Assembly: GCA_000018565.1 (NCBI GenBank)
Contig: CP000875.1
Location: 2,929,199-2,993,198, forward strand
From: Herpetosiphon aurantiacus DSM 785
GTDB lineage: Bacteria > Chloroflexota > Chloroflexia > Chloroflexales > Herpetosiphonaceae
Direction: 5' to 3'
DNA: 64,000 nt
The notes below the pieces were generated by a model. The model saw nothing but the letters and a program-made list of their open reading frames with translations, was not told where the DNA came from and did no database searches. A program made the position numbers and the translations under genes. Shown here one piece after another: positions 15,238 to 19,599 of the stretch. How positions within the stretch are numbered: the first letter of the stretch is position 1; every line of letters begins with the position of its first letter.

Positions 15238-15400
15238 TGGTTAATTCCTCAATTAATTGTTGCCCTTCAAAAGCTTAGCACAAACCAATGGTCACTCATC
15301 AAATTATTAACTTAGCAGTGATGATTGTCGAATTTGTATCACAATCGTTTTTTATAGTACTGCCATTGAAACCAATTAGCGGTTGACAAGGAGTTCGGAC

Positions 15401-16231
15401 ATGCGTAAACATTTAGCGGTGGCTGTTGGGGTAGTATCGTTGGCCTGTGGTGGCTATCTCTGGACGAACAACACTGCGGCCTTTGCTGCCAATAAAAACG
15501 ATCAGCCAGCCGAAACCATCACGATCAGCTCAAATCCTGAAGAAGTTACAATTGAATGCAATATGGCTGGCGGTGAAGGAATGTTCATGCCTACAATGCA
15601 CGGCGAAATCGCAGCGAGCACCCACGCAAGCCACATGCCCGCCATGGCAGTGCATAAACCGCTGGTTAGTGGCACATTACATCATCGTAGCGCCGCTGGC
15701 GCATCAGCCGATCCGCTTGCAATAACCAGCCAAATCAGCAGCACACACGTGACCAAGCCATTTGCCATGCTAGGTAATGCTGATGCTGAATCAAGCGATT
15801 GTGGTATCGCAGTACCAGTTGGGATCGATTGGTTTGAATTGGCTGCTGAAACGATTGGCGTTAGCAGCGATGAACTGCTGGCTGGGATTGAGAATGAAGT
15901 TAGCATCGCCGATCAAGCCGCCGCCAAGGGTGTGAGCAAACAAACCGTGATCGATGCAATCGTGGCTGCCGAAACTGCCAACATCAATCAACTGGTAATC
16001 GATGGTCAACTTAGTGCCGAAGATGCGGCATTATTTACCGCCGATCTGCCCGAAATGATCGAGCATTTCGTCAGTACTGCGTCGCATTTCATTCCAAGCG
16101 AAGGCGTTGCATGCGTCATGGTTGAACTTGATGAATCGGGCACCAGCACAACTGAAGAAGCAGTTGACTGCGAAGCAATCGAAGCTGTGCCCGCGCTACC
16201 AGTCGCACCAACCACCGATTCAAGTCGTTAG
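15401..16231 (+). CDS. secreted protein with LGIS-type helical repeat
   Basis: 276 residues, function unknown. Residues 1-29 form a signal peptide ending TAAFA. The middle (40-135) is His/Met-rich with few recognisable features. Residues 146-225 hold a helical module: ETIGVSSDELLAGI, then SIADQAAAKGVSKQTVIDAI, then INQLVIDGQLSAEDAALF and LPEMIEHFV. This is the pattern of a repeat found in secreted proteins of Actinobacteria and Chloroflexota (L-G-[IV]-S-x-x-E-L ... G-V-S). Four cysteines lie outside the signal. AAGGAG lies 7 bases before the ATG. It is followed directly by a response regulator and a kinase whose ectodomain contains the same repeat, so it may be a ligand or co-sensor. Confidence 0.75.
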   Translation: MRKHLAVAVGVVSLACGGYLWTNNTAAFAANKNDQPAETITISSNPEEVTIECNMAGGEGMFMPTMHGEIAASTHASHMPAMAVHKPLVSGTLHHRSAAGASADPLAITSQISSTHVTKPFAMLGNADAESSDCGIAVPVGIDWFELAAETIGVSSDELLAGIENEVSIADQAAAKGVSKQTVIDAIVAAETANINQLVIDGQLSAEDAALFTADLPEMIEHFVSTASHFIPSEGVACVMVELDESGTSTTEEAVDCEAIEAVPALPVAPTTDSSR

Positions 16232-16297
16232 ATCGCATGGCTGGTTGCAACATTCACCACGCCTGCAACCAGCCTTAATCCACACCAAGGAAGCAGC

Positions 16298-16975
16298 ATG
16301 GCCGCGACAATCATCATTATTGAAGATGAAGAACGGATTGCCCATTGGATGCAGTTGTATCTTGAGCAAGCGGGCTTTACAACCTATTTGGCCAGCGACG
16401 GCCTAGCAGGCTTGGCTTTGGTGCAGCAACACCAGCCAAGTTTAGTCGTTTTAGATCTGATGTTGCCCAAATTGGATGGCTTAGCGGTCTTCAAGACGAT
16501 TCGCCAAACTAGCAATACGCCAATTATTATGGTAACTGCGCGTAGCAGTGATGAAGAACGAATCCATGGCTTGGAGCTTGGCGCTGATGATTATGTTGGC
16601 AAGCCCTTCAATGCTCGCGAATTGGTGGCGCGAGTGCGGGCGGTTTTGCGGCGCAGCCAGCCAATTCAAGCTAGCCAAATGTTGAAACGCGGCCCGATCG
16701 AATTGGATTTGGAGCAACATTCATGCACCGTCAATCAGCAACCTGTCGAATTGAGCAAAATTCAATTGGCCTTGCTGGCGACATTTATGCGCCATCCCAA
16801 CCAAATTCTCAGCCGCGAACAGTTGCTTGAAGCCGTATTTGCTGGCGATTATGCTGGCTTTGATCGTTCGCTTGATGCGCATATCGCGCGTTTGCGCCAA
16901 CGGATCGAACATGATCGCACCAATCCACAGTATATTGTGACGGTGTATGGACTTGGCTATAAATTTGTTGATTAG
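16298..16975 (+). CDS. OmpR-family response regulator
   Basis: 225 residues. Receiver domain: acidic pocket IIEDEE at residues 7-12, phospho-acceptor Asp in VVLDLMLP (about residue 52), T in MVTARS and K in VGKPF. The C-terminal winged helix (about 130-225) contains NQILSREQLLEAVF and the recognition helix in SLDAHIARLRQRIE, ending with VYGLGYKFVD. It binds DNA when phosphorylated by its cognate kinase, encoded 10 bases downstream. AAGGAAG precedes the ATG. Targets are unknown; the adjacent secreted-protein gene is a natural candidate. Confidence 0.95.
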   Translation: MAATIIIIEDEERIAHWMQLYLEQAGFTTYLASDGLAGLALVQQHQPSLVVLDLMLPKLDGLAVFKTIRQTSNTPIIMVTARSSDEERIHGLELGADDYVGKPFNARELVARVRAVLRRSQPIQASQMLKRGPIELDLEQHSCTVNQQPVELSKIQLALLATFMRHPNQILSREQLLEAVFAGDYAGFDRSLDAHIARLRQRIEHDRTNPQYIVTVYGLGYKFVD

Positions 16976-16985
16976 GTAGGGTGTT

Positions 16986-18986
16986 ATGGGCAAATCGTTA
17001 CGCTGGAAATTAGGGGCAGCATTTGGCTTGGTGATTAGCGCAACCCTCTTGTTGAGCGGGCTAAGCGCATATTTGCTCACGACTCAACGCTTTGATATTT
17101 TTGTGGGCGACCAAAGCCAATTGCGCACCGAACAGCTTGCGCCATGGCTCGAAGCCAGTCATGCCTATAACGCTGATTGGTCGGCAATATCAACCTTATT
17201 GCGGCAAAGCGAAAATTTGAGCCAAACCCACACCCTGAGCCTAGCCCCAGCCATTTTCAGTATTGACAGCGGACAACTCTGGCAGGATAGCGCCGAGGTC
17301 ATTGGCATTAGTCCTGAGCATTTGCAAGGCGAGGTTGGTAGCGGCGGCAGCATCGAGAGCGTCGCATTAGCGCATAATGTCGATCCTGAGGCGTTGATCG
17401 TGAGCCTTGAGCAAGCCCAACTGCCAATGACCACCATCCCGACGACCATGGCCGTGGTCGGAGCCACGCCAACTGGCGCTGGCATCGACTTACAATCGCA
17501 AATTCGCTATTTTGTTGAATATCAAACCAGCCCCGATTGGCTCAGCCTAATTCAAAAACAACTGAATGCTAGCCCCGCTGAAATTCAACAAAGCTTGCAA
17601 CACCCCCAAGGCTTCGTGGCACTAGCTCAGCGCTATCAAAGCGAGCCACGGCTGCTCGTTCAGGCCATTGTTGAGGCCGAACTGGCACGCCTAAAATCCA
17701 TGTCGAGCATTCCAATCAGCAGCATTTTGAATGAACTCCCGCTGATCGCCCAATCAGCCTGGAGTTTTATCGATCCTCAAGGCCTAGCGCAGCCAAATAA
17801 TAGCCGAATGGGGCTGCTGCATCATGACAGCATGTTGCTGCAATGGGAATTACAAGCGCTCCTGCATGGCGATGAACGGCTGATTATTCTCGATCCAATG
17901 GGCAATGTGAGTTATGACAGCGCTCAGCAACTCAATAACGATCAGCAACTAGACAACGATTTGCGCCAGCATGCCGTGCCACTTTATGATTTAATCAGCA
18001 ACCAACCAATTGGCTCAGCCCTGATTGTGACTGGCACGCACGCGTACACCGAGCATCAAGGGGCATTTTTGCGTAGCACTGGACAGGCCTTGGTGATGAG
18101 CGGTGGTATCGTCGGAATGATCGTTTTGGCCTTAGGGTTTGTCTTGGTTCGCACCATTACCGCGCCAGTTTTGGCATTAATCCAAGCCACTAAGCAAATT
18201 ATCGCCGGCAATTGGCAAACGCAAGTGCCAATCCGGTCGCACGATGAGCTAGGCCAAATGAGCAAGGCCTTCAATCATATGGCCAATTCACTGGCCCAAC
18301 AGCGCATGTTACAAACCCGCCTAATTCACGATTTGACCCATGAATTGCACACTCCACTCAGCGTAATTCAGCTTGAAATGGAAGGCTTGGCCGATCAATT
18401 ACAAAGTGCCGATGAAGCTGCTCGCCATGTTGAGCATGAAATTAAATTGATTGTTAGCTTGCTCGATGATTTGACCTTGCTGCTCAAAACCGAATCACAC
18501 AGCCTAGAATTTAACCAAGAAGCATTAGATGTTGAGCAATTGCTCCACGAAACCCATCAACGTTGGCAACAACCAGCGCTCAATGCAGGCATCCAATTGA
18601 AACTTAGCATCGAGCAACCACTCCCCAAGATCGCTGTTGATCGCACGCGGATTGTGCAGGCCTTGGGTAATTTGCTGAAAAATGCGATTCGCCACACGCC
18701 AGCCAATGGCACGATCAGCATCAGTTGTAGTAGCGATCAGTCATCGATCAACCTAAGCATCCACGATACTGGCGAGGGAATTGCGGCTCATGATTTGCCG
18801 CATATTTTTGAGCGTTTCTATCGGGCCGATGCCTCGCGCAACCGCGATACAGGCGGGCGGGGCTTGGGTTTAGCGATTGTCAAGCAAATTATCGAGGCTC
18901 ATGGCGGCACAATTGAGGTGAGCAGCACACTTGGTCAAGGCAGCAATTTCCAAATATCGTTACCAATTAACCCAAGCCTCGACTGA
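16986..18986 (+). CDS. sensor histidine kinase with repeat-containing ectodomain
   Basis: 666 residues. A transmembrane segment at about 10-32, a large extracytoplasmic domain (33-365), a second segment at about 368-390, HAMP (391-440), HisKA with phospho-acceptor H452 in THELHTPLSV, and an HATPase domain with NLLKNAIRHTP, DTGEGI and GRGLGLAIVKQI. The ectodomain contains two copies of the repeat of the neighbouring secreted protein: residues about 98-144 (EVIGISPEHL, SIESVALAHNVDPEALI) and 185-235 (QLNASPAEIQQSL, FVALAQRYQSEPRLLVQAI). Shared repeats plus operon order suggest that kinase and secreted protein sense the same thing or each other. Its 3' end overlaps the convergent CPBP gene by 20 bases. 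Confidence 0.9.
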   Translation: MGKSLRWKLGAAFGLVISATLLLSGLSAYLLTTQRFDIFVGDQSQLRTEQLAPWLEASHAYNADWSAISTLLRQSENLSQTHTLSLAPAIFSIDSGQLWQDSAEVIGISPEHLQGEVGSGGSIESVALAHNVDPEALIVSLEQAQLPMTTIPTTMAVVGATPTGAGIDLQSQIRYFVEYQTSPDWLSLIQKQLNASPAEIQQSLQHPQGFVALAQRYQSEPRLLVQAIVEAELARLKSMSSIPISSILNELPLIAQSAWSFIDPQGLAQPNNSRMGLLHHDSMLLQWELQALLHGDERLIILDPMGNVSYDSAQQLNNDQQLDNDLRQHAVPLYDLISNQPIGSALIVTGTHAYTEHQGAFLRSTGQALVMSGGIVGMIVLALGFVLVRTITAPVLALIQATKQIIAGNWQTQVPIRSHDELGQMSKAFNHMANSLAQQRMLQTRLIHDLTHELHTPLSVIQLEMEGLADQLQSADEAARHVEHEIKLIVSLLDDLTLLLKTESHSLEFNQEALDVEQLLHETHQRWQQPALNAGIQLKLSIEQPLPKIAVDRTRIVQALGNLLKNAIRHTPANGTISISCSSDQSSINLSIHDTGEGIAAHDLPHIFERFYRADASRNRDTGGRGLGLAIVKQIIEAHGGTIEVSSTLGQGSNFQISLPINPSLD

Positions 18987-19599
18987 AAAAATAGTGGCCC
19001 AAGCCAACCGTAAACATCAAATTGCCATACAACGCATGCTCCAAACACACCAAACGCAACGAGCGGGTTTGGCGATAGGTATCAGCAAATAGCCAACCGC
19101 CAATCAGGGTCAACAGCACAGCGTAGGGATTACGAAAAATAATATGCGCCCAGCCAAACAGCATAGCACTGAGCAGCAGCAGCCAACGCTCATTCAACAA
19201 ATCGCGGTAGCGCTCGAAAAACAAACCACGAAAGACCAATTCTTGAATGTAGACCGAAAAGATCGGGTAGACTAACAGAATCGTGAGCCAAAGCCAAGGC
19301 TGTTGGCGCGGCAAATTGAATAAATTGGCTGGTTGCCAAAACCACACTAACAGCACCGCCAACAGACTGGCCAAGCCAAAACGTTGCAGCAAACGCCAAA
19401 ACTGAGCTTGTTCGAGCGGATTAAACCACCCTTGCCAAAGCCCAATTGGCACTGCTCGCCGCCGCAACCAAAACCACGCCCCAAGCGCCGCCAAACCCAG
19501 TACCCCAAACCACCAACGGGCTGGCACAACAAAGCGCAGCACCAACGGCACGAGGCCAAACAAAACCAGCATTTCAAGCCACAGCCACCAACGCCGCAT
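18967..19599 (-). CDS. CPBP-family intramembrane metalloprotease
   Basis: 210-residue integral membrane protein with about six hydrophobic segments. The family's three motifs can be placed: motif 1 reads QELVFRG (usual EExxxR), motif 2 FGWAH (FxxxH) and motif 3 EHALYGN (HxxxN/D). The family (Rce1/ABI type) cleaves prenylated proteins in eukaryotes and has roles in bacteriocin immunity or signalling in bacteria. The first Glu of motif 1 is Gln here, which could lower or change activity. It is convergent with, and overlaps, the histidine kinase; substrates unknown. Confidence 0.8.
   Translation of the reverse strand: MRRWWLWLEMLVLFGLVPLVLRFVVPARWWFGVLGLAALGAWFWLRRRAVPIGLWQGWFNPLEQAQFWRLLQRFGLASLLAVLLVWFWQPANLFNLPRQQPWLWLTILLVYPIFSVYIQELVFRGLFFERYRDLLNERWLLLLSAMLFGWAHIIFRNPYAVLLTLIGGWLFADTYRQTRSLRLVCLEHALYGNLMFTVGLGHYFFSRGLG

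What the first reader, a model, noticed from the sequence alone, without database searches (positions are those of the whole stretch)
15401..18986. Secreted protein and sensor kinase share an extracellular repeat
The secreted protein (residues 146-225) and the kinase ectodomain (98-144 and 185-235) carry the same helical module: L-G-[IV]-S-x-[ED]-x-L ... S-I-x-x-x-A-x-x-x-x-V-[SD]-x-x-x-[LV]-I. They are consecutive with the response regulator. This suggests a sensing system in which the exported protein is a competing ligand decoy, co-receptor or scavenger for the same signal as the kinase. I know of no described two-component system built in this way.
Basis: partly seen in the sequence, partly recalled or inferred. 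Interest (0 to 1): 0.65.

Follow-up and report, generated by a model that had tools for sequence, protein, structure and literature searches.

The report
Sensor kinase carrying its partner's module
A predatory soil bacterium makes an exported protein and, from the next genes, a surface sensor that has two worn copies of the same small helical building block inserted into its outer part; elsewhere the block is mostly found in exported proteins often encoded beside such sensors, which suggests that the two work together outside the cell.

Summary
An ~80-residue helical module (secreted protein residues 145-223) recurs twice, degenerately, in the kinase ectodomain (about 100-144 and 189-239). Plain BLASTP cannot see it, but a profile from 151 copies outside Herpetosiphon finds the window kinase at E=1.9e-9, well above shuffles and other kinases. 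The module has no Pfam or NCBIfam assignment and no convincing PDB match; AlphaFold gives a confident five-helix fold. It is found in 225 of 301 Chloroflexota genomes sampled, and in Actinomycetota and Bacillota.

The three-gene order is kept in 6 of 6 Herpetosiphon, and a secreted module gene lies beside a response regulator plus kinase in 28 of 60 other Chloroflexota genera (19 in the window's own order). None of 59 other kinase frames scored carries the module. A profile of 17 linked kinases aligns to the window kinase on both sides of a ~207-residue insertion that holds the two copies. So an exported protein often encoded next to a two-component system has, in Herpetosiphon, its module built into the sensor as well.

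Most likely this is a three-component system (compare HbpS-SenS-SenR) whose exported protein modulates the kinase; the decoy idea is one rival. Binding and signal are untested. New variant of a known kind.

The parts
15401..16231 (+). Secreted module protein (SEC), 276 aa, N-terminal signal-like hydrophobic stretch (by eye), four Cys after it conserved in 6/6 orthologues (53, 134, 238, 257)
   Evidence: no Pfam, NCBIfam or PHROG match
15833..16069 (+). Complete ~80-aa helical module (residues 145-223)
   Evidence: AlphaFold model of 15815-16093, pLDDT 91.5, five helices
16298..16975 (+). OmpR/PhoB-type response regulator
   Evidence: PF00072 and PF00486 above their cut-offs
16986..18986 (+). 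Membrane histidine kinase: TM1, long ectodomain, TM2, HAMP, HisKA, HATPase
   Evidence: two hydrophobic stretches by a simple hydropathy scan
17244..17864 (+). Insertion (about residues 87-293) relative to linked kinases of other Chloroflexota
   Evidence: profile of 17 linked kinases aligns to residues 3-86 (22 bits) and 294-661 (345 bits)
17283..17417 (+). Degenerate module copy 1 in the kinase ectodomain (residues 100-144)
   Evidence: 21.8 bits; hhalign
17550..17702 (+). Degenerate module copy 2 (residues 189-239; may run to about residue 262 by predicted helices)
   Evidence: 10.9 bits; five helices in model
15324..15345 (.). Candidate operator: inverted repeat ATTGT-N12-ACAAT upstream of the secreted gene
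   Evidence: conserved in 6 of 6 Herpetosiphon; function inferred only

Best explanation
The three genes form a three-component sensing system. The secreted protein is an exported accessory component of the kinase; it probably contacts the kinase ectodomain and sets its activity, and being encoded with the regulator and kinase it can close a feedback loop. In many other genomes the module is a free protein encoded beside two-component genes. In an ancestor of Herpetosiphon two copies were inserted into the ectodomain of a kinase of the same general type, so that a module is now both free and tethered, and sensing may run through module-module contact or through a ligand that both bind. Shown: homology of the modules, the insertion, conserved linkage. 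Inferred: export (from sequence by eye), physical contact, direction of the effect, feedback, signal.
For: Module homology. Linkage: in one locus per genus from 60 other Chloroflexota genera, RR and kinase both near the secreted module gene in 28 of 60, 19 in the order secreted-RR-kinase on one strand (16 with at most 300 nt between open frames); RR density 0.178 per kb in the first kb against 0.010-0.020 per kb at 3-7 kb. After the module proteins, kinases and RRs are the largest neighbour families; the next occurs in 10 of 139 loci. Same linkage in 18 of 79 named loci, including Acidimicrobiia and Clostridia. Insertion. Model of the ectodomain: copy 2 has all five helices, the fifth outside the alignment rows supplied.
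Against: No binding or expression data. 30 of 60 and 57 of 79 module loci have neither RR nor kinase within 3 kb (some loci are cut by contig ends), and Herpetosiphon has a second module protein with no RR or kinase among the ORFs of 150 aa or more in its 9-kb locus: the module also occurs without linked two-component genes. The Herpetosiphon kinase sits on a long branch with unresolved placement, and the linked RR is the best match to the window RR in only 8 of 19 linked genomes, so descent from the linked operon is not proven. The N-terminal flank of the insertion rests on 22 bits.
Confidence: 0.48

Rival explanations
1. Output gene plus domain recruitment: the secreted protein is a target of the response regulator (an envelope-protective protein), and the kinase separately acquired the module because it binds the same envelope or metal component. 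No contact between the two proteins.
For: Many module loci have no linked two-component genes (30 of 60 and 57 of 79); the inverted repeat upstream of the secreted gene is conserved in 6 of 6; one module protein carries what looks by eye like an SH3-type domain.
Against: The secreted-RR-kinase order in 19 of 60 genera suggests more than a regulon member; no ligand is known.
Confidence: 0.27
2. Decoy or scavenger: free and kinase-borne modules bind the same soluble signal and the exported copy competes for it.
For: Free and tethered copies of one module from adjacent genes.
Against: None of 59 other kinase frames scored carries the module, so the linkage exists without it; the kinase copies are degenerate and may have lost any ligand site.
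Confidence: 0.17
3. The resemblance is convergence of short helical sequences, not homology.
For: BLASTP finds nothing; hhalign sees copy 1 only, probability 83%; module profiles also pick up unrelated helical hairpins such as 3-hydroxyacyl-CoA dehydrogenases.
Against: E 1.9e-9, two copies, six kinases in the top seven of 4256 targets, shuffle and other-target controls at 13.4 bits or less.
Confidence: 0.04

Closest known systems
HbpS-SenS-SenR three-component system of streptomycetes (PMC4991794; abstract and Introduction read)
   Same: Secreted protein, sensor kinase and response regulator clustered in one orientation; the secreted protein binds the sensing domain and modulates autophosphorylation.
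   Different: HbpS is a haem/iron-binding protein of GAF/PAS-like fold; the window protein is a helical module with no Pfam match. The paper's Introduction does not describe SenS as carrying an HbpS copy. Gene order there is hbpS-senS-senR, here secreted-RR-kinase.
CpxP-CpxRA and QseG-QseEF accessory-protein systems (CpxP: search listing and recall; QseG: abstract of PMC12691602)
   Same: Extracytoplasmic accessory protein acts on a kinase (QseG-QseE: shown by structure and autokinase assay in that paper's abstract and outline).
   Different: Unrelated accessory families; no shared module with the kinase that I know of (recalled).
Kinases sharing an extracytoplasmic domain with free proteins (PASTA kinases and penicillin-binding proteins; Venus-flytrap kinases and solute-binding proteins), recalled, from no call
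   Same: One extracytoplasmic domain occurs in a kinase and in separate envelope proteins.
   Different: Different folds; the module here is unnamed and has no known ligand.

Membership tests
OmpR/PhoB-type two-component system | RR with receiver plus winged-helix output; kinase with HAMP, HisKA and HATPase | tested here: met
   All over curated cut-offs, HisKA narrowly (27.5 against 26.9)
HbpS-SenS-SenR | Secreted accessory gene clustered with kinase and RR, same orientation | tested here: met
HbpS-SenS-SenR | Accessory protein belongs to the HbpS (haem-degrading type) family | tested here: not met
   0 Pfam families at E<=10; that HbpS has a Pfam model is recalled
HbpS-SenS-SenR | Accessory protein binds kinase and alters autophosphorylation | not testable with these tools
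   needs biochemistry
CpxP/Spy/ZraP (LTxxQ) accessory family | LTxxQ-family match | tested here: not met
   0 Pfam families at E<=10; that this family has a Pfam model is recalled
Unnamed ~80-aa secreted helical module | Full-length match to a profile of copies from other genera | tested here: met
   Secreted protein 64.2 bits over residues 145-223; 60.5 bits with the larger profile
Unnamed ~80-aa secreted helical module | The same for the kinase copies | tested here: inconclusive
   First half clear (21.8 and 10.9 bits); second half not matched by sequence; copy 2 has the helices in the model, whose alignment rows favour that fold over the first half

The most novel reading that the evidence does not exclude
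The kinase captured the module of its own exported partner: free and tethered modules bind each other homotypically, and the system reads occupancy or displacement of that contact by an envelope component. The free module would then be a general, undescribed class of extracellular two-component regulator in Chloroflexota, Actinomycetota and Bacillota.
Probability: 0.25. Interest if true: 0.7.

Novelty: new variant of a known kind. Interest (0 to 1): 0.52.

Why it matters
It points to a widespread, unnamed exported domain whose genes often sit beside two-component genes, in several phyla, and gives one natural case in which that domain has been built into the kinase. Such a fusion suggests, without proving, that partner and sensor act together, and gives a direct place to look for the contact. 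What such systems sense is unknown here.

Tried and rejected
Considered and rejected: conserved order within the genus as proof of linkage (the neighbouring genes are largely conserved too in 6 of 6, so it proves little; the cross-genus survey was done instead). A copper/metal reading of the Met/His-rich stretch (about residues 54-95): it is poorly conserved in the orthologues. An 878-aa match in G033: -0.9 bits with the module profile and by eye an amidase-type secreted protein. Long frames with module matches: those of 691 and 694 aa are GC-rich read-through ahead of lipoprotein-like starts, the 486-aa one a membrane protein with an SH3-like end by eye, the 550-aa one a 3-hydroxyacyl-CoA dehydrogenase by eye, the 840-aa one the read-through frame of L135; no kinase. 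The L072 512-aa frame is also an exported-type protein. A 282-aa Herpetosiphon match is a 3-hydroxyacyl-CoA dehydrogenase by eye, a helical-hairpin false positive; a few of these may be among the 225 genomes, whose threshold was E 0.001.

Led nowhere: Foldseek against PDB, no match at E<=0.001; VIA-align best Z 6.2, within the range the tool says may mean only a common helical arrangement. Kinase tree: Herpetosiphon unresolved; 7 of 28 fetched kinases were dropped because no frame with the H-box pattern was found, and 8 duplicates were removed. Promoter and terminator scan at or below chance level. Aligning linked kinase ectodomains to the window ectodomain with MAFFT failed; the profile search was used instead. 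In one search the script stopped before printing the regulator density for the 79 named loci, so that control exists for the 60 loci only.

Limits: the match list was cut at about E 2e-15, so weaker module-bearing kinases in Chloroflexota could be missed. The ectodomain profile gave 14 matches outside Herpetosiphon in 301 genomes, in 13 frames; all 13 were checked: 12 carry the module, 1 is a solute-binding-type protein without it, none is a kinase. The 60 loci are the best displayed match of one genome per genus, 60 of the 61 other genera on that list (131 other genera matched in all; G252's genus was left out to keep to three fetches). The profile used 17 of the 19 kinases in secreted-RR-kinase order. 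The 79 named loci come from a capped scan and are redundant.
Full report
What is there. The window lies in a 6.79-Mb, three-contig genome; the chromosome length of 6,346,587 is the one I recall for Herpetosiphon aurantiacus DSM 785, and the genus name used throughout rests on that recall (no call names the genome). On the + strand three genes follow one another: a 276-aa protein with an export-type N-terminus by eye (15401-16231), an OmpR/PhoB-type response regulator (16298-16975) and a 666-aa membrane histidine kinase (16986-18986), with gaps of 66 and 10 nt. An acyl-CoA dehydrogenase-like gene is divergent upstream and an Rce1/CPBP-like protease gene convergent downstream.

Is the repeat real? 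BLASTP between the two proteins finds nothing, so the eye saw something that a pairwise search does not. Profile methods do see it. A profile of 27 module copies from other genera matches the secreted protein at residues 145-223 (64 bits) and the window kinase with two domains, 19.6 bits in total, against at most 9.7 in 5000 shuffles of the ectodomain. A profile of 151 copies, none from Herpetosiphon, gives the window kinase 35.8 bits, E 1.9e-9, with copies at 100-144 (21.8 bits) and 189-239 (10.9 bits). The other five Herpetosiphon kinases score 23.0-34.4 bits; the best other target among 4256 has 12.1, the best of 10000 shuffles 13.4, and the best of 59 other histidine kinase frames 5.4. Those 59 are every kinase frame detected in the surveyed loci; three are shorter than 300 aa and two are identical. 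Profile-profile comparison gives 83% probability and E 8.5e-6, for copy 1 only. Pairwise shuffle tests agree. In the other direction the ectodomain profile, searched in 301 Chloroflexota genomes, finds the six Herpetosiphon kinases and then, weakly, 14 matches in 13 frames of 204-452 aa; 12 of these 13 frames carry the module by the module profile, one (G165) does not, and none is a kinase.

What the module is. About 80 residues: a first half of the type LGxS/TxxELxxxLxxGxSLAxIAxxxGVxxxxVIDAxVA, and a second half of the type VxxGxLTQEQADxxL. No Pfam or NCBIfam family reaches its curated cut-off for the window's module; the scattered weak hits of its relatives include DUF2680 and SHOCT-like models. 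The best PDB sequence match is a partial one to ribosomal protein S20 at E 0.0023, which I take as chance. AlphaFold with 54 sequences gives a five-helix fold, mean pLDDT 91.5; Foldseek finds no PDB match at E<=0.001. The module proteins whose frames I read mostly have an export-type N-terminus by eye. Frames with two or more copies over 25 bits: 19 of 60 and 16 of 79, at most four copies. The module is in 225 of 301 Chloroflexota genomes at E<=0.001 and in Actinomycetota, Bacillota and a few others.

Gene neighbourhood. Within Herpetosiphon the three genes are together in 6 of 6 genomes, but their neighbours are largely conserved too. The informative test was elsewhere: one locus from each of 60 other Chloroflexota genera. 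Both a regulator (within 3 kb) and a kinase (within 4.5 kb) lie near the secreted module gene in 28 of 60: secreted-RR-kinase on one strand in 19 (16 with at most 300 nt between open frames), RR-kinase-secreted in 4, opposite orientation in 4, other in 1. Two have only one of the pair and 30 have neither within 3 kb; some loci are cut by contig ends. Regulator density is 0.178 per kb within 1 kb and 0.010-0.020 per kb at 3-7 kb. In 79 named loci from GTDB genomes, a capped and redundant set, both are near in 18, one in 4, neither in 57; those with neither include all 20 loci of Blastococcus, Modestobacter, Geodermatophilus and Trujillonella. Apart from the module proteins themselves, kinases (48 loci) and regulators (35 loci) are the largest neighbour families by BLAST clustering in the 139 loci; the next occur in 10.

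The insertion. A profile of 17 linked kinases from other genera matches the window kinase over residues 3-86 (22 bits) and again over 294-661 (345 bits), E 5e-113 in all, with model positions meeting at about 84-91. About 207 residues, which hold both module copies, are therefore extra. By a simple hydropathy scan, 34 of 48 linked kinases with an estimate have ectodomains of 120-160 residues, 7 are below 80 and the largest is 235, whereas the window kinase has about 340 between its two hydrophobic stretches. The ectodomain model is of low overall confidence (pLDDT 63.9), but residues 66-114 and about 154-233 of the model (kinase 95-143 and 183-262) are mostly confident and helical. Copy 2 shows all five helices, the fifth in a part for which no alignment rows had been supplied. 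The rows supplied were module proteins, so the first four helices are not independent evidence.

Descent. A tree of 67 kinase domains puts the Herpetosiphon kinases on a long branch in a group of 45 that holds 26 of the 44 linked kinases and 13 unlinked ones; the placement within it is not resolved. The linked regulator is the best match to the window regulator in 8 of 19 linked genomes. So it is not shown whether the Herpetosiphon operon descends from the linked operons or was assembled again.

How it may work. The least demanding reading is a three-component system: an exported protein that acts on the kinase ectodomain. HbpS-SenS-SenR is the model for this (PMC4991794, abstract and Introduction read), and an accessory protein that binds and activates its kinase is reported for QseG-QseE (PMC12691602, abstract and outline read). 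The Herpetosiphon insertion is the kind of fusion from which a functional link between a free protein and its partner is often inferred (established reasoning, recalled). The decoy version needs the kinase to bind the same ligand through the module, and 59 of 59 other kinase frames lack a detectable one. An alternative with fair odds is that the secreted protein is an output of the regulator and that the shared module marks a shared envelope target. Nothing here measures binding, regulation or signal.

Novelty. Secreted accessory proteins of two-component systems are known. A kinase with copies of its neighbour's secreted module, and an unnamed module linked to two-component genes across phyla, did not turn up in seven paper searches of the open-access library; most subscription papers are not in that library.

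Noticed in passing
window 15324-15345: Inverted repeat ATTGT-N12-ACAAT upstream of the secreted gene, kept in 6 of 6 Herpetosiphon; candidate operator.
   Followed up: partly
L221:4115-4873 (own genome, about C1:6171114-6171872): A second exported-type protein with two modules; no response regulator or kinase among the ORFs of 150 aa or more listed in its 9-kb locus.
   Followed up: partly
window 18967-19599 (-): Rce1/CPBP-like protease gene convergent with the kinase gene and overlapping its end by 20 nt; by eye, similar protease frames lie next to module proteins in L051 and L053.
   Followed up: no
L225 (G390:C328:4000-9000): Membrane protein with a module and, by eye, a C-terminal SH3-like domain, a hint of an envelope role.
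   Followed up: no
L119-L122, L125, L126, L128, L144, L146, L150, L151, L154, L155, L157-L159, L166, L167, L169, L170: Module proteins of Blastococcus, Modestobacter, Geodermatophilus and Trujillonella, none with RR or kinase within 3 kb.
   Followed up: no
L042:5581-6480: The secreted orthologue of G044 is 293 aa and has extra residues in the variable region before the module.
   Followed up: no
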